This document shows, one piece after another, positions 1-6,452 of a stretch of DNA of 64,000 bases. The position numbers were made by a program, and so were the translations under genes. A model generated the notes under the pieces. It searched no databases. It saw only the letters and a program-made list of their open reading frames with translations, and had not been told where the DNA came from. Position 1 is the stretch's first letter, and each line of letters begins with the position of its first letter. This DNA is from Bifidobacterium breve. Lineage in GTDB: Bacteria; Actinomycetota; Thermoleophilia; Solirubrobacterales; Solirubrobacteraceae. The stretch lies in contig CAMCUD010000024.1 in the NCBI GenBank assembly GCA_945878865.1, forward strand, positions 1-64,000. Direction: 5' to 3'.

Positions 1-902
1 ACGCGTCGGTCAAGGCCGCCGTAATCGGCCACGCGACCACGCTCGTCAACGCGCTCTCGTCGCTCGACAGCCGGCTCTCCGTCCTCGAGAACCAGGCCGG
101 CACCGAGTTCACCGAGCTGACCACTGGCGCCCAGAACCCGATCGGCCCGATGGCGACCGAGCTGGCCCGCCTCAACGGCCAGATCCGCACGGCGGTGACC
201 GCGGGCCAGTCGCCCAACGAGCTGCTTGACCGCCGGGACCTCCTGATCGACAAGCTCGCCGAGTACGGCACCGTCACGGTGACCGAGCAGGGCTTCGGCG
301 CGGTGCAGATCGACTTCGGCGGCGCGGCGACCCCGCTCGTCGACGACGTCGTCGCGACGTGGCCGCAGGCCCTGAGCCCGACGCCCGGCGGCAAGCTGCA
401 GGCGCTGCTCGACGTGCAGACCACCGTGGCGTCGTACCGCGCCGACCTCGACAACGTCGCCAGCTCGCTGGCGACCACAGTCAACGCCGCGCATACGGTC
501 GGCGGCGCTCCGAACTTCTTCAACGGCACGACGGCCTCGACCATCGCGGTCAACGTCACGACCGCCACGCTGGCGGCCGGCTCGGGCGGCACGGTCAGCT
601 CGAACGACATCGCCCGCGCGATCGCCGCCCTGGGCAACGGGGCGACCGATGACCTCTACGGCACGTTCGTCAGCCGCGTCGGCCAGGACGTCAACCTCGC
701 CGAGAGCGCCGCCAACGCGTCTGCGGCGCTGCGGATGACGATCGACAACCGCCGCAAGAGCGTGTCGGGTGTCTCCATGGATGAGGAGATGACGAACATG
801 ATCCGCTTCCAGCGCGCCTACCAGGCCTCGGCCCGGACGATGAACGCGATGGACGAGATGCTCGACACGATCGTCAACCGGATGGGTCGGGTGGGCCTGT
901 GA
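1..902 (+). CDS. flgK: Flagellar hook-associated protein 1, 3' part
   Basis: C-terminal part of FlgK, the first hook-filament junction protein, which is exported through the flagellar type III apparatus and sits between hook and filament. The frame is open from the window edge (first full codon at position 3), so the start lies outside. The last 40 residues carry the FlgK/FlgE-type C-terminal helix (MIRFQRAYQASARTMNAMDE) that forms the D0 coiled coil of the axial structure. The stop overlaps the GTG of the next gene by 4 nt (GTGA), so translation of flgK and flgL is probably coupled. The following genes flgL, fliW, csrA and flagellin fit a late flagellar operon. Confidence 0.93.
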   Translation, partial: ASVKAAVIGHATTLVNALSSLDSRLSVLENQAGTEFTELTTGAQNPIGPMATELARLNGQIRTAVTAGQSPNELLDRRDLLIDKLAEYGTVTVTEQGFGAVQIDFGGAATPLVDDVVATWPQALSPTPGGKLQALLDVQTTVASYRADLDNVASSLATTVNAAHTVGGAPNFFNGTTASTIAVNVTTATLAAGSGGTVSSNDIARAIAALGNGATDDLYGTFVSRVGQDVNLAESAANASAALRMTIDNRRKSVSGVSMDEEMTNMIRFQRAYQASARTMNAMDEMLDTIVNRMGRVGL

Positions 903-1816
903 CCTCCACCTCGCGCATCACCGAGGGCATGACGGCCAACCGGCTGCTCGTCGACCTGCGGCGCGCCGGCAACGCCGTCGACCAGAGCTCCTCGCAGATC
1001 TCCAGCGGCAGCCGCCTGCTCGACGCCGCCGTCGATCCCCTCGCCACGCACCGCTCGCTGCGGCTGCGCCAGGACCTCAGCCAGGTCGACGCGTTCCGCA
1101 ACAACGTCACGCTGGCCACCGGCTGGATGGAGGCGACGGACGAGGCCCTCGGCACGATCACCAGCCAGATCCACCGCGTCCGCGAGCTGACGGTGCAGGG
1201 CGGCAACGACGCGATGACCCAGAGCGACCGCGACGCCCTCGCCGAGGATGTCCTCAACGCGATCTCGTCGGTCAAGCTCGCCGCCAACGCGCGGTACAAC
1301 GACTCCTACATCTTCGGCGGCCAGATCACGAACGCCGCCCCGTACGACCCGACCGCCGCCGGCCCGGACACCTACAACGGCGACGCCAACGCGATCGTCC
1401 GCTCGATCAGCCCCGGCGTGTCGCTGCAGATCAACGTCACCGGCGACACGATCATCGGCAACGGCGCCGACGGCAAGCTGCTGAACACCCTGCGCGACAT
1501 CTACACCGCGCTGAAGGGCGGCACCGCGGCCGATCTGAACGCGCTGCGCAGCACGGCGCTGCAGGGCCTGGACACCGGCCTGCAGGACGTCCTGACCGCC
1601 CGCTCGACCGTCGGCGCGGGCATCAACCGGCTCGAGCACGCGACCGCGACGCTCGACCAGCAGCAGCTCTCCGTCACGAAGTACCTCAACGACACCGAGA
1701 GCACCGACATGACGGAAACGATCCTGCAGCTGAACAGTCAGAAGCAGGTCTACAACGCCGCCATCCAGGTCGGCTCGAATCTGATCCAACGATCGCTCAT
1801 GGACTTCCTGCGATGA
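899..1816 (+). CDS. flgL: Flagellar hook-associated protein 3
   Basis: 305 aa, GTG start overlapping the flgK stop. FlgL is the second junction protein; it caps the hook-side ring and accepts the first flagellin subunits. The N-terminus (RITEGMTANRLLVDLRRAG) and the C-terminal helix ending NLIQRSLMDFL are flagellin-like D0/D1 coiled-coil segments. The middle segment containing YIFGG is typical of FlgL, and the length is normal for the family. It belongs to the flgK-flgL-fliW-csrA-flagellin run, all on the same strand. Confidence 0.93.
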   Translation: MTSTSRITEGMTANRLLVDLRRAGNAVDQSSSQISSGSRLLDAAVDPLATHRSLRLRQDLSQVDAFRNNVTLATGWMEATDEALGTITSQIHRVRELTVQGGNDAMTQSDRDALAEDVLNAISSVKLAANARYNDSYIFGGQITNAAPYDPTAAGPDTYNGDANAIVRSISPGVSLQINVTGDTIIGNGADGKLLNTLRDIYTALKGGTAADLNALRSTALQGLDTGLQDVLTARSTVGAGINRLEHATATLDQQQLSVTKYLNDTESTDMTETILQLNSQKQVYNAAIQVGSNLIQRSLMDFLR

Positions 1817-1845
1817 GCGTTCTGCACGAAGACCACGGAGGTTCC

Positions 1846-2304
1846 ATGCAGGCAGTTGTGCTCGAGAGCACACGGTTCGGTCAGCTCGAGATCCCGGCGG
1901 AGGCGGCCCTGGAGTTCCCCAACGGGCTCATCGGCCTCGGCGGGACGCGCTACGCGCTGCTCGCCCGCAGCGACGAGAGCGCGTTCATGTGGCTGCACTC
2001 GCTCGAGGATCCGGCGCTCGCCATCCCGGTGACCGTCCCGTGGCGCTTCTTCCCCGACTACGAAGTCGAACTGTCCGACGACGAGGCGGAGCGCCTCGGC
2101 GTGACGGATCCGGCGGACACGCAGGTCTACGTGACCGTGCGCGCCGCCGAGGCCCTGGAGGACTTCACCGCGAACCTGCGCGCCCCCATCCTGGTGGCCG
2201 ACGGCCGCGGCTTCCAGATCATCAACCAGTCGAAGAACGCTCCCGTCCGGTGCCCGCTGTTTCAGCCAGGCATGAACCCCGGCTCGGAGGAGCAGGCCGC
2301 CTAG
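1846..2304 (+). CDS. fliW: Flagellar assembly factor FliW
   Basis: 152 aa. FliW binds free flagellin and also binds CsrA as a non-competitive antagonist. When flagellin is exported, FliW is released and titrates CsrA, which lifts repression of flagellin translation. Family features are LEFPNGLIGL near the N-terminus, an acidic centre, and the ILVADGRGFQIINQSKNAPVR segment near the C-terminus. An upstream ATG at 1813 overlaps the flgL stop, but ATG 1846 has GGAGG at 1837-1841 and begins at the conserved part of the protein, so it is preferred. The gene is immediately followed by csrA, its regulatory partner. Confidence 0.92.
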   Translation: MQAVVLESTRFGQLEIPAEAALEFPNGLIGLGGTRYALLARSDESAFMWLHSLEDPALAIPVTVPWRFFPDYEVELSDDEAERLGVTDPADTQVYVTVRAAEALEDFTANLRAPILVADGRGFQIINQSKNAPVRCPLFQPGMNPGSEEQAA

Positions 2305-2337
2305 CGGCGCCGCTCTGTCCAGGGAGGAACGTTCCCC

Positions 2338-2568
2338 ATGCTCATCATCACCCGACGTCCCGGCGAGAAGATCATGCTCGGCGACGACATCGTCGTGGAA
2401 GTGATGGAGGTCAGCGGCAACAGCGTGCGTCTCGGCATCGCTGCGCCGCGGTCGGTCCCGGTCTACCGCGAGGAGATCTGGGCCGCAGTCAAGGAGGAGA
2501 ACGCAGCCGCCGCGTCCGCGGACGTCACGCAGCTGCCCGACGCCCTGCCCGTGAGGAGCAGGACCTAG
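2338..2568 (+). CDS. csrA: Carbon storage regulator / flagellin translational repressor CsrA
   Basis: 76 aa RNA-binding protein that dimerises and binds GGA motifs in hairpin loops near ribosome-binding sites. The start MLIITRRPGEKIMLGDDI and the RLGIAAPRSVPVYREEIW stretch, which holds the RNA-contacting arginine region, are canonical. The roughly 20-residue C-terminal extension is typical of FliW-regulated CsrA proteins, where FliW binds. A strong ribosome-binding site (AGGGAGG, 2321-2327) precedes ATG 2338. The next gene is flagellin, whose 35-nt leader carries GGA motifs, so a FliW-CsrA-flagellin partner switch is inferred. Confidence 0.95.
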   Translation: MLIITRRPGEKIMLGDDIVVEVMEVSGNSVRLGIAAPRSVPVYREEIWAAVKEENAAAASADVTQLPDALPVRSRT

Positions 2569-2579
2569 ATCGCCGCTAA

Positions 2580-2606
2580 GGACGGCAAAGGAGGAAGCAA
2601 AGGATG
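2580..2606 (+). promoter_or_regulatory. Candidate CsrA-binding array over the flagellin ribosome-binding site
   Basis: Four GGA triplets are seen within 25 nt, at 2580-2582, 2590-2592, 2593-2595 and 2602-2604. The middle pair is the Shine-Dalgarno sequence (AGGAGG) of the flagellin gene and the last overlaps its ATG. GGA is the core CsrA target, so bound CsrA would block ribosome access. Function is inferred from the motif and from the adjacent fliW and csrA genes. Confidence 0.6.
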
Positions 2607-3413
2607 GCTCTTCGGATCCAGAACAACATCGAGGCGCTGGGGGCACATAGGAACCTCACCGTCACGAACAGTCACCTGACGAAGGCGATGAGTCGGCTCT
2701 CGTCGGGGTTCCGAATCAACAGCGCCGCGGATGACGCCGCGGGCCTGGCGATCTCGGAGCGGATGCGCGGTCAGATCAGCGGCATCTCGCAGGCGATGCG
2801 CAACGCGCAGGACGGTATCTCGCTCATGCAGACCACTGAGGCTGCCATGACCGAGGTCCACAGCATGCTCCAGCGTGTGCGTGAGCTTGCCGTTCAGTAC
2901 ATGAACGGCTCCGTCTCCCCCAGTGACCGGACCGCAATTCAGTCGGAGGTCACCCAGCTGCAGCTCGAGATCGAGCGCATCGGTCAGCAGACCTCGTTCA
3001 ACGGCATCCCGGTGCTCAACGCCGCCGGCGCCGTCACGTTCCAGGTCGGCGCGAACGACAGCGAAGCGATTTCGGTCCCGACGATCTCCCTCTCGGGGGC
3101 GCTCGGGGCGAACTGGGCGACGCTCAGCCTCACCAACGCCAGTGACATCGCGGAGATCGACGCCGCGATCAACGCCGTGTCGCAGCAGCGCGCGACGTTC
3201 GGCTCGGTCCAGAACCGCTTTGAGCACCTGCTCAACAGCCTCGGGACCTACCACGAGAACCTCGTCTCGGCCGAGTCGCGCATCCGCGACCTCGACATGG
3301 CCGAGGGCATGGTCGACATGACCCGGTACCAGGTCCTCCAGAAGGCCGGTACGGCGATGCTCGCACAGGCCAACCAGTCCAACCAGACGGTGCTCCAGCT
3401 CCTCCAGAGCTAG
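2604..3413 (+). CDS. fliC: Flagellin
   Basis: 269 aa filament subunit exported by the flagellar type III system. The N-terminal D0/D1 helices (MALRIQNNIEALGAHRNL, SRLSSGFRINSAADDAAGLA) and the C-terminal D1/D0 helices (SAESRIRDLDMAEGM, ending TVLQLLQS) are classic. Only about 80 residues separate them, so this is a minimal flagellin nearly lacking the surface D2/D3 domains. ATG 2604 follows AGGAGG at 2590-2595. Translation is probably controlled by CsrA and FliW from the two genes upstream. A strong hairpin ends the unit. Confidence 0.97.
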   Translation: MALRIQNNIEALGAHRNLTVTNSHLTKAMSRLSSGFRINSAADDAAGLAISERMRGQISGISQAMRNAQDGISLMQTTEAAMTEVHSMLQRVRELAVQYMNGSVSPSDRTAIQSEVTQLQLEIERIGQQTSFNGIPVLNAAGAVTFQVGANDSEAISVPTISLSGALGANWATLSLTNASDIAEIDAAINAVSQQRATFGSVQNRFEHLLNSLGTYHENLVSAESRIRDLDMAEGMVDMTRYQVLQKAGTAMLAQANQSNQTVLQLLQS

Positions 3414-3440
3414 AGCTCGCACCCTTCCCTGACGGTGCGC

Positions 3441-3472
3441 GGGGCCGCCTTCGGGCGGCCCCGTCGTCGTTC
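3441..3472 (+). terminator. Rho-independent-type terminator after flagellin
   Basis: A perfect 9-bp stem, GGGGCCGCC (3441-3449) and GGCGGCCCC (3454-3462), closes a TTCG tetraloop and is followed by a moderately T-rich tail (GTCGTCGTTCT). It lies 28 nt after the flagellin stop and before the promoter of the next gene. Confidence 0.8.
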
Positions 3473-3509
3473 TGGAGCACGGGTGATCCGCGACCGGGGC
3501 CCCGCCCGG

Positions 3510-3522
3510 CACAATAGGGGCG
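3510..3522 (+). promoter_or_regulatory. Putative -10 element of a leaderless-type promoter
   Basis: CACAAT (3510-3515) lies 7 nt before the GTG at 3523 and no ribosome-binding site separates them. This fits a transcript starting at or next to the start codon. The 13-mer CAATAGGGGCGGT (3512-3524) recurs exactly at 23482-23494, again directly at a start codon. Confidence 0.45.
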
Positions 3523-5034
3523 GTGACGAGCTCCGTCGGGACCCTGCTGAACGAGCGCTACCGCCTCGACGCCGAGGTGGGCACCGGCGGCATGTCCACG
3601 GTCTACCGGGCGTTCGACACGCTGCTCGAGCGCCAGGTCGCGATCAAGCTCATGCATCGCGACATCGCCCGGCACGGCGATCAGCTCGAGCGCTTCCGCC
3701 GCGAGGCCCGAGCCGTCGCGCAGCTCAACCACCCGCACATCGTCCAGGTCATCGACTTCGGCGAGGACGACAGCACGCCGTACATCGTCCTGGAGTTCGT
3801 CGACGGCGAGACGCTGAAGGACCGCATCCGGCGGATGGGCCGGCTCCCGGTCTCCGAGTCGATCGCCTACGCCATCGAGATCGGCCGCGCACTGCAGGCC
3901 GCGCACGAGCGCAACATCGTCCATCGCGACGTCAAGCCGCAGAACGTCCTCATCGACGAGGAAGGCTCGGCGAAGGTCACGGACTTCGGGATCGCGCGCA
4001 CGCTGGACCAGGAGGGCCTGACCGCCGACGGCCGGGTGCTCGGCACGACGGACTACGTCTCGCCCGAGCAGGCGCTCGGCCAGCCGGTCACCGGGCAGAG
4101 CGACGTGTACTCGCTCGGGGTCGTCCTCTTCGAGATGCTCACCGGCGACGTCCCGTTCAAGGGCGAGAACCAGGTCGCCGTCGCGATGAAGCACGTGCGC
4201 GAGGAGCTTCCCGACGTCCAGCTGCGGCGCCCGGAGGTCTCTGCCGCCCTCGCCGCGGTCCTCGACCGCGCGACGGAGAAGGACCTCGACAAGCGCTACC
4301 CGAGCGCCGGCGCGTTCATCGCCGACCTCGAGGACGCGCTGGCGATCGAGACCGCGCGCTCGGGCCAGGCGACCGGCGAGGCGACGGCCATCATCCGCAC
4401 GCTGCCCAAGCGTGCGCAGCGGCGCCTGCCGTGGCGCACCCGGATGGGCGTCGGCCTGCTGCTCGCCGCGGCCGTCGGCGGGCTCGCGCTCGTGCTCATC
4501 CTCGTGGTCTTCGCCGCCGACAACGCCGAGCGCGGCACCGGCGGCGCCCAGCGCAACCTGACACCCGCCCCGCCGACGGTGGAGGCCGTGCAGCTGGGGC
4601 AGCGCGCCGCATCGGACTTCGACCCCCCGCCGGGCGACGGGCGCGAGCATCCGGACGAGACGAGCTTCGTGCTGGACGGCAACAAGGCGACGACGTGGTC
4701 GACGGAGACCTACGAGGCCGGCGAGCTGCAGAAGCCCGGAGTCGGCATCTACGTCGACGCCAAGCCGCAGGTCGCGGCCGTGCAGATGCAGATCGGCTCG
4801 AAGACGCCCGGGTGGAGCGGCGACATCTACGTGGCGAAGAACGGCGACGTCCCAGGCACGCTCGACGGCTGGCAAAAGGTCGGCACCGTCGAGGACGCCA
4901 AGCGCACCGAGACCGTCGATCTGGACACCGCGGGCAATCCGTTCCGCTACTACCTCGTGTGGATCACGAAGCTGCCTCCGGAGAGCCAGAAGGTGGAGAT
5001 CTCCGAAATCGTGCTGCGAAAGCGCAGCTCCTGA
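3523..5034 (+). CDS. Membrane Ser/Thr protein kinase with discoidin-like extracytoplasmic domain
   Basis: 503 aa Hanks-type kinase. The glycine loop is GTGGMSTV, followed by the ATP lysine at Lys42, catalytic HRD at 134-136 and DFG at 154-156, so all catalytic residues are present. One transmembrane helix spans about 309-331. The outer segment, about 365-500, contains SFVLDGNKATTWSTETY and ends with a beta-rich stretch. This resembles F5/8 type C (discoidin) carbohydrate-binding domains rather than PASTA repeats. The extracytoplasmic part probably senses a sugar or wall ligand. The gene stands alone between flagellin and a lipase, with a GTG start and a leaderless-type promoter. Its substrate is unknown. 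Confidence 0.88.
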   Translation: MTSSVGTLLNERYRLDAEVGTGGMSTVYRAFDTLLERQVAIKLMHRDIARHGDQLERFRREARAVAQLNHPHIVQVIDFGEDDSTPYIVLEFVDGETLKDRIRRMGRLPVSESIAYAIEIGRALQAAHERNIVHRDVKPQNVLIDEEGSAKVTDFGIARTLDQEGLTADGRVLGTTDYVSPEQALGQPVTGQSDVYSLGVVLFEMLTGDVPFKGENQVAVAMKHVREELPDVQLRRPEVSAALAAVLDRATEKDLDKRYPSAGAFIADLEDALAIETARSGQATGEATAIIRTLPKRAQRRLPWRTRMGVGLLLAAAVGGLALVLILVVFAADNAERGTGGAQRNLTPAPPTVEAVQLGQRAASDFDPPPGDGREHPDETSFVLDGNKATTWSTETYEAGELQKPGVGIYVDAKPQVAAVQMQIGSKTPGWSGDIYVAKNGDVPGTLDGWQKVGTVEDAKRTETVDLDTAGNPFRYYLVWITKLPPESQKVEISEIVLRKRSS

Positions 5035-5121
5035 GCCTCCGGTCCCCCGCGGTTTTGTAGCCGCCCACAATCCGGCGATATCCCCGGAAATGGTGGTCGG
5101 ATCGGGTTTCTGAAGATCACC

Positions 5122-5151
5122 TTGACAGCGGCTGATGTCCGGGTGTACAAC
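5122..5151 (+). promoter_or_regulatory. Sigma-70-type promoter
   Basis: A perfect -35 TTGACA (5122-5127), an 18-nt spacer and -10 TACAAC (5146-5151). It is one of the best consensus promoters in the window. It points toward the 25-codon frame and the lipase gene. Confidence 0.65.
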
Positions 5152-5165
5152 ACCCCGCACACCAC

Positions 5166-5181
5166 GACCGACCGCTCGGTC
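5166..5181. promoter_or_regulatory. Candidate operator palindrome
   Basis: GACCGACCGCTCGGTC has GACCG/CGGTC arms and an inner ACCG-CT-CGGT dyad. It lies 14-29 nt after the -10 box at 5146-5151, where a bound repressor would block transcription. The style resembles TetR-family operators of actinobacteria. A near-identical 16-mer occurs at 26244-26259. The binding protein is unknown. Confidence 0.4.
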
Positions 5182-5218
5182 AGGTGACTGTCCAACGTTC
5201 TTCCGGGGGGAGGCAGCG

Positions 5219-5296
5219 ATGCGAGCAGAACGTGCCGTGATCCGTCGTTCCCTCGAGGAACCCGTGCCGGGGAGCGCGGTACTGCCGACCGTGTAG
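5219..5296 (+). CDS. Possible 25-aa leader peptide
   Basis: The small frame ATG 5219 to TAG 5296 would encode MRAERAVIRRSLEEPVPGSA plus five residues. It is preceded by a very strong Shine-Dalgarno sequence (GGGGGGAGG, 5205-5213, 5-nt spacing) and lies downstream of the consensus promoter. It has no recognised family and no hydrophobic segment. It ends 13 nt before the large inverted repeat, so it may act as a regulatory leader peptide for the downstream lipase. Codon evidence is too little to be sure it is translated. Confidence 0.35.
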   Translation: MRAERAVIRRSLEEPVPGSAVLPTV

Positions 5297-5309
5297 TGCC
5301 GCCCGACAA

Positions 5310-5357
5310 CCCGGGGCGCGGAGCTCGAAGTCAGAGGGGGAAACTCCGCGCCCCGGG
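5310..5357 (+). repeat. 14-bp perfect inverted repeat (RNA hairpin)
   Basis: CCCGGGGCGCGGAG (5310-5323) and CTCCGCGCCCCGGG (5344-5357) are perfect complements around a 20-nt loop. No T-run follows, so it is not a standard intrinsic terminator. It lies within the presumed lipase leader and could be an attenuator arm or mRNA-stability element. Confidence 0.6.
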
Positions 5358-5564
5358 ATTCGCATCAAGCCTGGACCTGTCCCCAGGCGTCCCGGGGCCG
5401 GATCGGAGGTGCACCTTCGACCGGCCCTTGGTCGTTGTGAAACCTGTCCTCCACGCCAAATCTCCTTGACGTCCCTTTGGCGCGTCGGATAGAAGGAACA
5501 CGCCGCGTTTCTGGGGAACGAGGCGCGGCATGCCCTGTCCATCGTGACTCTCTGGGAGGAGAGC

Positions 5565-6452
5565 ATGCGTCTGCACCGCACCGCGGTGGCGCTGGCCTGT
5601 GCCATCGTCGCCTTCCTCGGGCTCGCCGGCTCCGCGTCGGCCGCCTACACCGTGACGCCGAGCTTCGCGCTCGGCCTGAGCTTCGGCCTCGCCGACCCGG
5701 GCGGCACGCCGCCCGGCGTCAACCGCAACGACTGCAAGCTCACGCCGGAGCATCCGCGCCCGGTGATCCTCGTCCACGGCACGACCGAGAACCGGCTCGC
5801 GAACTGGTCGGGCATGGGCCCGTACCTCGCCAACCAGGGCTTCTGCGTGTTCGCGCCCAACTACGGCTACTACAACAACATCCCCGCGCTGACCTACATC
5901 GAGAACAGCGCGGCGCAGCTGAGCACGTACGTCGACCAGATCCTCGCGAAGTACCCGGGCGTGTCGAAGGTCGATCTCGTCGGCCACTCGCAGGGCGGCA
6001 TGATGCCGCGGTACTACATCAAGTACCTGGGCGGCGATCAGAAGGTCAACCGCCTCGTCGCGATCTCGCCGTCGAACCACGGCACGACGCTGAGCGGGCT
6101 GGCGAACCTCGCGAAGGTCTTCGGCCTGACCGGCGCCGTCCAGACCGTCGGTCCGGCGTTCGCCCAGCAGATCCAGGGCTCGGCGTTCATCACGAACCTC
6201 AACGCGGGCGACGAGACGCCCGGCAACGTCAAGTACGACGTGCTCGTGACGAACGGCGACCAGGTCGTCACGCCGTACCAGAGCGCCTACATCAACGGCG
6301 CGTCCGCGTGGGTCGCCCAGAGCGGGTGCATCCTGGAGGCTTCCGAGCATCTCCAGATCTCGTACTCGCCGCGCGTGCAGACGAAGGTCGCGAACCTGCT
6401 CGACGGCAAGAACCGGTCGCTGCCGTGCACGCTGGTGCTGCCGTACGTGTAG
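5565..6452 (+). CDS. Secreted triacylglycerol lipase (class 2 lipase, alpha/beta hydrolase)
   Basis: 295 aa. ATG 5565 is chosen over GTG 5544 because GGGAGGAG lies just before it and the protein then opens with a clean signal peptide (MRLHRTAVALACAIVAFLGL, cleavage after SASA). The mature part shows the VHGTTEN oxyanion strand and the nucleophile elbow GHSQGG with Ser142. A late SEHLQISYSP segment probably carries the catalytic histidine. The family (Lipase_2, PF01674-like) hydrolyses acyl esters outside the cell. The long structured leader suggests tight control. It converges on ddl across a hairpin-rich gap. Confidence 0.88.
   Translation: MRLHRTAVALACAIVAFLGLAGSASAAYTVTPSFALGLSFGLADPGGTPPGVNRNDCKLTPEHPRPVILVHGTTENRLANWSGMGPYLANQGFCVFAPNYGYYNNIPALTYIENSAAQLSTYVDQILAKYPGVSKVDLVGHSQGGMMPRYYIKYLGGDQKVNRLVAISPSNHGTTLSGLANLAKVFGLTGAVQTVGPAFAQQIQGSAFITNLNAGDETPGNVKYDVLVTNGDQVVTPYQSAYINGASAWVAQSGCILEASEHLQISYSPRVQTKVANLLDGKNRSLPCTLVLPYV

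What the first reader, a model, noticed from the sequence alone, without database searches (positions are those of the whole stretch)
2561..2606. FliW-CsrA partner switch with four GGA motifs in the flagellin leader
fliW, csrA and flagellin are consecutive, and the flagellin leader has GGA at 2580, 2590, 2593 and 2602, two of them forming the Shine-Dalgarno sequence. This organisation is well known in Bacillus and epsilonproteobacteria; its presence in a thermoleophilic actinobacterium with a minimal 269-aa flagellin would show the switch is ancient or transferred.
Basis: partly seen in the sequence, partly recalled or inferred. Interest (0 to 1): 0.55.

Follow-up and report, generated by a model that had tools for sequence, protein, structure and literature searches.

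The report
Flagellin self-control switch in soil actinobacteria

Summary
In detail: flgK-flgL-fliW-csrA-flagellin are consecutive, with GGA at 2580, 2590, 2593 and 2602. The switch reading is well supported for the lineage. Window CsrA has V51 and N55, which FliW needs; N55 is in 72 of 72 class CsrA from FliW or flagellin loci and in 0 of 38 CsrA from elsewhere. Flagellin leaders of the class often hold GGA hairpins, one of them on the Shine-Dalgarno (SD). An SD hairpin of at least 4 bp is in 56% of 137 leaders, against 7% shuffled, 9% arm-swapped and 13% of 124 control genes. A covariance model gave 99 hits at E<=1.5e-4 in 146 family genomes, all in flagellin leaders. The marked leader is a poor example: the model gives it 5.8 bits, it has one 4-bp hairpin (2572-2586) and no SD hairpin, and its layout is shared only with the sister species. 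The model's one strong hit in this genome is the second flagellin, on another contig. The mechanism is known (Bacillus hag, Campylobacter flaA), and Actinobacteria were already listed as possible FliW users. New here: the class-wide RNA element, and a second CsrA without N55 in relatives lacking detected FliW.

The parts
3..902 (+). flgK (5' end cut by the window), hook-associated protein
   Evidence: Pfam FlgK_D1 2.9e-27
899..1816 (+). flgL, hook-associated protein
   Evidence: Pfam Flagellin_N 2.7e-17 and Flagellin_C 8.7e-07; named flgL from its place after flgK (inference)
1846..2304 (+). fliW, CsrA antagonist
   Evidence: Pfam FliW 3.2e-28; matches solved FliW 5dmb_A 6.2e-17
2322..2336 (+). 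possible GGA hairpin on the csrA SD: GGGA[GGAACGT]TCCC (tentative autoregulation)
   Evidence: csrA-1 SD hairpins 15 of 48 against 11.9% shuffled, outer pairs covary only weakly
2338..2568 (+). csrA-1, 76 aa with C-terminal extension; R6, R44 (RNA binding), V51 and N55 (FliW binding)
   Evidence: Pfam CsrA 1.2e-23; residue table; V51, N55 and R44 as defined in PMC7829508 (passages); R6 as an RNA-binding residue is recalled
2572..2586 (+). candidate upstream CsrA site: GCCG[CTAAGGA]CGGC, GGA 2580 in the loop
   Evidence: sequence; identical block in sister L035; only 4 bp, no covariation available
2590..2595 (+). SD of flagellin, GGAGGA (two adjacent GGA), linear, no hairpin found on it
2602..2604 (+). 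fourth GGA, overlapping the start codon
2604..3413 (+). flagellin (fliC/hag), 269 aa
   Evidence: Pfam Flagellin_N 2.9e-45, Flagellin_C 1.4e-25
3441..3462 (+). 9-bp hairpin with TTCG loop after flagellin, likely end of the unit
   Evidence: read from sequence; not scored with a tool

Best explanation
fliW and csrA-1 in this window form the FliW-CsrA-flagellin homeostasis switch. A CsrA dimer binds GGA sites in flagellin leaders and covers the SD, blocking translation. FliW binds the CsrA helix around V51 and N55 and releases the RNA; unexported flagellin binds FliW and so restores repression. In this lineage the main RNA target is a leader with up to two hairpins: an upstream hairpin with a short ANGGA loop flanked by AC and GU, then the SD inside a second GGA loop. 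At least one of them is in 86 of 105 flagellin leaders not next to csrA and both in 43 of 105, and they precede the second flagellin of this genome on contig C4. The csrA-adjacent flagellin of the window keeps a reduced version, one 4-bp GGA hairpin plus a bare SD, probably a weaker CsrA target. Shown by sequence: genes, residues, hairpins with covariation, co-occurrence. Inferred: binding, repression, flagellin-FliW feedback.
For: Gene order and domains. V51 and N55 in window CsrA; N55 in 72 of 72 CsrA from FliW or flagellin loci and 0 of 38 from elsewhere; R6 and R44 invariant in the 72 and in the 18 of the 38 that were tabulated. SD hairpin >=4 Watson-Crick bp in 56.2% of 137 flagellin leaders against 6.8% shuffled, 12.9% of 124 control genes, 9.8% of 51 fliW, 4.0% of 25 flgL; arm swap 9.3%; 24 of 29 genera, shuffled mean 7.5, max 14. 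Upstream GGA hairpin in 53.3% of 137, against 3.2% of 124 controls and 5.1% shuffled. At least one hairpin in 86 of 105 remote leaders. Upstream stem: 6 of 7 pairs with both-sided changes in 43 leaders chosen for having it. Model R1: 99 hits at E<=1.5e-4 in 58 of 146 genomes, all in flagellin leaders (coordinates); 42 of 45 FliW-positive genomes of this family have it (tabulated by hand).
Against: The window leader itself scores 5.8 bits with R1 and has no SD hairpin; of csrA-adjacent flagellins only 12 of 34 have an SD hairpin, against 65 of 103 remote ones, and 20 of 36 have neither hairpin. Leaders are related: one per cluster at 0.7 similarity gives 42.5% against 12.0% in controls, at 0.6 25.0% against 12.5%, and at 0.55, where 130 of 147 fall in one cluster, 3.5% against 15.5%. 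Loop and stem limits were set after seeing the first leaders. The SD hairpin of this genome's second flagellin has a 9-nt loop, outside the 5-8-nt limit of the counts. FliW-positive G370 has only a weak hit, and G238 and G389 none listed; G314 and G326 have the element without a FliW hit (assemblies 81% and 89% complete). A second CsrA in the cell could also bind these leaders. No binding was measured.
Confidence: 0.82

Rival explanations
1. The four GGA in the window leader are only a strong SD and its surroundings; this flagellin is not CsrA-regulated, and only the remote flagellin is.
For: Two GGA are the SD and one overlaps the ATG; R1 does not find the leader; fold unremarkable; csrA-adjacent leaders have SD hairpins in 12 of 34 only, and 20 of 36 have neither hairpin.
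Against: The 15-nt block GCCGCTAAGGACGGC with GGA in the loop is identical in the sister species although sequence around it differs; 9 of 36 csrA-adjacent leaders have an upstream GGA hairpin >=4 bp, against 4 of 124 controls.
Confidence: 0.35
2. The leader hairpins are recognised by the second, N55-less CsrA-2 rather than, or as well as, CsrA-1.
For: CsrA-2 keeps R6 and R44; G326 has flagellins with the element but no FliW hit and one CsrA, of the CsrA-2 type.
Against: CsrA is in 184 of 399 class genomes and flagellin in 88, so flagellin cannot be the only target of CsrA-2; 42 of 45 FliW-positive genomes of the family carry the element; G326 is 89% complete, so fliW-csrA-1 may simply be missing from the assembly.
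Confidence: 0.2
3. The SD hairpins are plain RNA thermometers or SD-masking structures with no protein partner.
For: Hairpins on an SD can mask it without a protein (established knowledge).
Against: The SD GGA sits in the loop, exposed, not in the stem; a second GGA-loop hairpin with AC/GU flanks as in the SELEX consensus RUACARGGAUGU (PMC7652899, passages) often lies upstream; the element goes with FliW.
Confidence: 0.05

Closest known systems
Campylobacter jejuni flaA leader with CsrA and FliW (PMC4894983, passages read)
   Same: Two stem-loops with ANGGA loops, the second on the ribosome-binding site, compensatory changes; FliW antagonises CsrA.
   Different: GGA-GGA spacing 21 nt there; here 22-26 or 31-39 nt in 57 of 71 leaders that have an upstream stem of 5 bp or more, often with a GGGAC between; here mostly on a flagellin remote from csrA; unrelated phylum and stem sequences.
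Bacillus subtilis hag leader, Hag-FliW-CsrA homeostasis (PMC6529632, PMC7652899, passages read)
   Same: A FliW-CsrA-flagellin switch; two CsrA sites in the leader, one on the SD; N55 needed for FliW (PMC7829508, passages). That fliW-csrA lie beside hag is recalled.
   Different: Here a second flagellin elsewhere carries the stronger site, and a second CsrA without N55 exists in the genome.
E. coli glgC leader (PMC7652899, passages)
   Same: A GGA hairpin just upstream plus a site on the SD, bridged by a CsrA dimer; this is the layout of the window leader.
   Different: CsrA in E. coli is antagonised by sRNAs, and FliW is absent from Gammaproteobacteria (same passages); different target.

Membership tests
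FliW-CsrA-flagellin partner switch | FliW domain protein encoded beside csrA | tested here: met
   5dmb_A match
FliW-CsrA-flagellin partner switch | CsrA with RNA-binding R6 and R44 | tested here: met
FliW-CsrA-flagellin partner switch | CsrA V/I51 and N55 for FliW, and C-terminal extension | tested here: met
   V51, N55, 76 aa; N55 in 72 of 72 CsrA from FliW or flagellin loci, 0 of 38 from elsewhere
FliW-CsrA-flagellin partner switch | GGA sites on the flagellin SD, in hairpin loops | tested here: inconclusive
   Window leader: one 4-bp upstream hairpin, SD linear. Second flagellin of the genome (L133): upstream hairpin of 6 bp and an SD hairpin of 5 bp whose loop is 9 nt
FliW-CsrA-flagellin partner switch | CsrA binds the leader and represses translation | not testable with these tools
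   needs gel shift, footprint and reporter
FliW-CsrA-flagellin partner switch | FliW binds CsrA and flagellin in turn | not testable with these tools
   needs pull-down
Two-stem-loop flagellin leader (C. jejuni flaA type) | Two GGA-loop hairpins, second one on the SD, covarying | tested here: not met
   Not met by the window leader. Met by 43 of 105 remote flagellin leaders of the class, at least one hairpin in 86 of 105 (covariation)
Rfam families | Match to a curated RNA family | tested here: not met
   Only one match below E 5 in window 1-6000 (a viral leader family at 17.2 bits against a cut-off of 70) and one below E 1 in 5 loci holding the element (21.9 against 43)

The most novel reading that the evidence does not exclude
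Thermoleophilia run two separate CsrA circuits in one cell: CsrA-1, gated by FliW through N55 and devoted to flagellins via a dedicated two-hairpin leader, and CsrA-2, which lacks N55, cannot answer FliW, is kept in genomes in which neither FliW nor flagellin was found, and must control something else by an unknown antagonist or none. N55 presence would then be a sequence marker for FliW control of any CsrA.
Probability: 0.55. Interest if true: 0.6.

Novelty: new member of a known kind. Interest (0 to 1): 0.42.

Why it matters
It supports by covariation, in a phylum where my searches found no work on it, that control of flagellin translation by CsrA with FliW is inherited across Actinomycetota, and supplies a searchable RNA element that marked only flagellin leaders at E<=1.5e-4 in 146 genomes of one family. 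It also gives a natural experiment, two kinds of CsrA differing at the FliW contact, for asking what CsrA does in genomes where neither FliW nor flagellin is found.

Tried and rejected
Whole-leader fold of the window: no signal. Counting GGA: weak. csrA autoregulation by an SD hairpin: 15 of 48 csrA-1 leaders with an SD GGA (24 more have none) against 11.9% shuffled, but outer pairs fit barely above expectation (13 against 10.8; 8 against 5.6); kept as tentative. fliW and flgL leaders: no enrichment. Other targets in this genome: R1 gave one strong hit (fliC2, itself in the training set), the next at E 0.04; the five weaker hits have no flagellin profile match nearby and were not followed. Weak family hits at E 1.1e-3 to 7.8e-3: 13, of which 4 were checked, none near flagellin. 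Natural controls (flagellin without a FliW hit: G077, G314, G326) are too few and partly incomplete. Named genomes: one scan gave only Svornostia abyssi; no paper held on it. CsrA tree: 60 columns, bootstrap not settled, rough. Papers on Actinobacteria or Thermoleophilia with FliW/CsrA: the listings of searches showed none on these leaders; PMC7366521 (passages) treats CsrA distribution but has no occurrence of the word Actinobacteria.

Rows dropped before counts: leaders identical over -35..-1 were counted once; genes with no start within 45 nt of the expected place or under 60 nt from a contig end were dropped; leaders without GGA at -16..-6 were left out of hairpin percentages (flagellin 137 kept; one search shows 4 of 141 without) but count as no hairpin. 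The flagellin listing was cut, so weaker matches were not fetched, and near-identical G380 loci were skipped on purpose. For alignment A1 I took leaders with an upstream stem of at least 6 bp and gave 43 of 49 (six near-copies of L144/L145 left out). Of the 58 FliW-positive genomes in the phylum sample only the best-scoring other-class loci (27) were read. The 99-of-99 check uses the coordinates and, for the rest, the flagellin profile; I made it by hand. The 42-of-45 table is also by hand; G238 and G389 may not have been among the 146 genomes, and 14 element-positive genomes new were not tested for FliW.

Full report
WHAT IS THERE. The window opens with the end of flgK (3-902), then flgL (899-1816), fliW (1846-2304), csrA (2338-2568) and flagellin (2604-3413), all on the + strand and supported by Pfam. 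GGA occurs at 2580, 2590, 2593 and 2602 as reported. The csrA stop and the flagellin ATG are 35 nt apart, so the flagellin is either read through from csrA or has a promoter inside csrA (inference). A 9-bp hairpin follows the flagellin at 3441-3462. The nearest named relative found is Svornostia abyssi J379 (FliW 89% identical; Thermoleophilia, Solirubrobacterales, Baekduiaceae).

SURVEY. FliW is in 81 of 399 genomes of the class, CsrA in 184 of 399, relatives of the window flagellin in 88 of 399, and FliW in 58 of 396 genomes drawn from the phylum. So at least 103 class genomes have CsrA without a FliW hit. flgK-flgL-fliW-csrA is the usual order in the fetched class loci; flagellin directly after csrA is seen in a part of them. 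In several loci of family f5 the order differs: flagellin lies just before fliW, and csrA stands beside a second flagellin.

CsrA RESIDUES. FliW binding needs CsrA V51 and N55 in C. jejuni, and N55 also in B. subtilis (PMC7829508, abstract and passages) and Geobacter (PMC13407953, abstract and passages). Window CsrA has V51 and N55. N55 is present in 72 of 72 class CsrA taken from FliW loci or from flagellin loci beside csrA, and in 25 of 25 CsrA readable at that place in the 27 other-class loci of the phylum that were read (one more was cut off, one locus had none found). It is absent in 18 of 18 CsrA from a second locus, 6 of them in FliW-positive genomes, and in 20 of 20 further CsrA from FliW-negative genomes. 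R6 and R44 are invariant in the 72 and the 18. A rough 60-column tree separates the main FliW-linked group from the rest with 99/92 support; the FliW-linked CsrA of family f5 lie inside the other clade but keep N55, so N55 goes with FliW rather than with descent.

LEADER HAIRPINS. In flagellin leaders the SD GGA often sits in a 5-8-nt loop of a stem whose sequence changes from genus to genus, for example TCCATC[AAGGAG]GATGGA, GATTC[AAGGAG]GAATC, TCAACA[AGGAG]TGTTGA, GCATCC[CCAGGAGA]GGATGC. Stems of at least 4 Watson-Crick pairs: 56.2% of 137 leaders; shuffled flanks 6.8%; 124 other SD-led genes 12.9%; fliW 9.8% of 51; flgL 4.0% of 25. Swapping arms between leaders with different arms drops it to 9.3%. 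Averaged by genus it is 56.3%, with 24 of 29 genera having at least one; 200 shuffles gave mean 6.9%, max 17.4%, and at most 14 genera. Similarity clustering lowers the figure (42.5% against 12.0% at 0.7; 25.0% against 12.5% at 0.6; at 0.55, where 130 of 147 leaders fall into one cluster, 3.5% against 15.5%).

UPSTREAM HAIRPIN. A GGA in -60..-20 with a stem of at least 4 bp (loop 4-8) is in 53.3% of 137 flagellin leaders, 3.2% of 124 controls and 5.1% of shuffles. A typical form is GGAGCGAC[ATGGA]GTCGCTCC; the AC and GU flanks match the SELEX consensus RUACARGGAUGU (PMC7652899, passages). In 43 aligned leaders, chosen because they have the stem, 6 of 7 stem pairs show both-sided changes. Where the upstream stem has 5 bp or more, the spacing between the two GGA falls at 22-26 or 31-39 nt in 57 of 71, roughly one RNA helical turn apart (the last remark is inference). 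Both hairpins are in 43 of 105 remote leaders and at least one in 86 of 105; for csrA-adjacent leaders 5 and 16 of 36.

MODEL SEARCH. Covariance model R1 found one strong site in this genome, the leader of the second flagellin, C4:20500-20566 (E 1.3e-6; it is a training sequence; next hit E 0.04). Over 146 genomes of the family it gave 99 hits at E<=1.5e-4 in 58 genomes, all in flagellin leaders by the coordinates or the profile, many in genomes not used for the model, and 13 weak hits (E 1.1e-3 to 7.8e-3), of which 4 were checked and none is near flagellin. By hand, 42 of 45 FliW-positive genomes of this family carry it (G370 has a weak hit only; G238 and G389 have none listed). FliW-negative genomes with the element are G314 and G326, both with flagellin and incomplete. 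Rfam has no credible match.

THE MARKED LEADER. It is not of this type. R1 gives 5.8 bits, E 7.5. What it has is GCCG[CTAAGGA]CGGC at 2572-2586, identical in the sister species (L035), and a bare GGAGGA SD. csrA-adjacent flagellins in general are weaker: SD hairpin in 12 of 34 against 65 of 103 remote flagellins; upstream hairpin in 9 of 36 against 64 of 105. Its layout resembles the glgC arrangement, a hairpin site upstream of an SD site (PMC7652899, passages). The second flagellin of the genome has an upstream stem of 6 bp and an SD stem of 5 bp with a 9-nt loop, which the 5-8-nt counts do not include.

HOW IT WORKS. Most likely as in Bacillus and Campylobacter: a CsrA dimer bridges the GGA sites and covers the SD; FliW, freed when flagellin is exported, removes CsrA. 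The parts and the RNA conservation are shown here; the binding steps are inferred.

AGE AND NOVELTY. In the 27 other-class loci read (the best FliW scores of the phylum sample), flgL-fliW-csrA order is usual and N55 is kept. Of 13 flagellin leaders there, 6 have an SD hairpin (loops to 9 nt, no shuffle made) and 8 an upstream GGA hairpin of at least 4 bp (upstream shuffled 4.9%). With the published vertical origin of actinobacterial flagella (PMC10746217: abstract, passages and one section), this favours an ancestral switch; I made no FliW tree across phyla. Actinobacteria had been named among groups that may use FliW (PMC4682653, passages). My paper searches listed no study of these leaders. 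I therefore file it as a new member of a known kind.

Noticed in passing
G000 contig C12:11722-11880 (L168); L169-L182, L185-L187, L272-L291: A second CsrA without N55, found also in genomes without FliW and without a flagellin hit. In 6 of 18 loci (L170, L174, L178, L179, L181, L185) an enolase-like gene lies within 5 kb (Pfam-checked in L174 and L181; a DivIC-domain gene follows it in L174); the genes beside csrA-2 (L168:5270-5515, L174:4291-4875) have no Pfam match.
   Followed up: partly
L168, L169, L170 csrA-2 leaders: The csrA-2 SD lies in GGCAC[GGGAG]GTGCC in three genomes of the window's genus; 6 of 15 csrA-2 leaders with an SD GGA have a hairpin >=4 bp against 11.6% shuffled: possible autoregulation.
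   Followed up: partly
2322-2336 and csrA-1 leaders of relatives: csrA-1 SD often in TTCC[AAGGA]GGAA; autoregulation possible but covariation weak.
   Followed up: partly
L133 (G000 contig C4:15000-26000): Second flagellin locus: part of flhA, a glycosyltransferase-family gene, flagellin, a CHAP-domain protein and a chemoreceptor; flagellin glycosylation is a guess.
   Followed up: no
L144, L145, L142: Genus g16 has arrays of many tandem flagellins (nine starts in L144), most with an upstream GGA hairpin of their own.
   Followed up: no
leaders: GGA-GGA spacing has two classes (22-26 and 31-39 nt, 57 of 71), and a GGGAC often follows the upstream hairpin, perhaps a third CsrA site.
   Followed up: no
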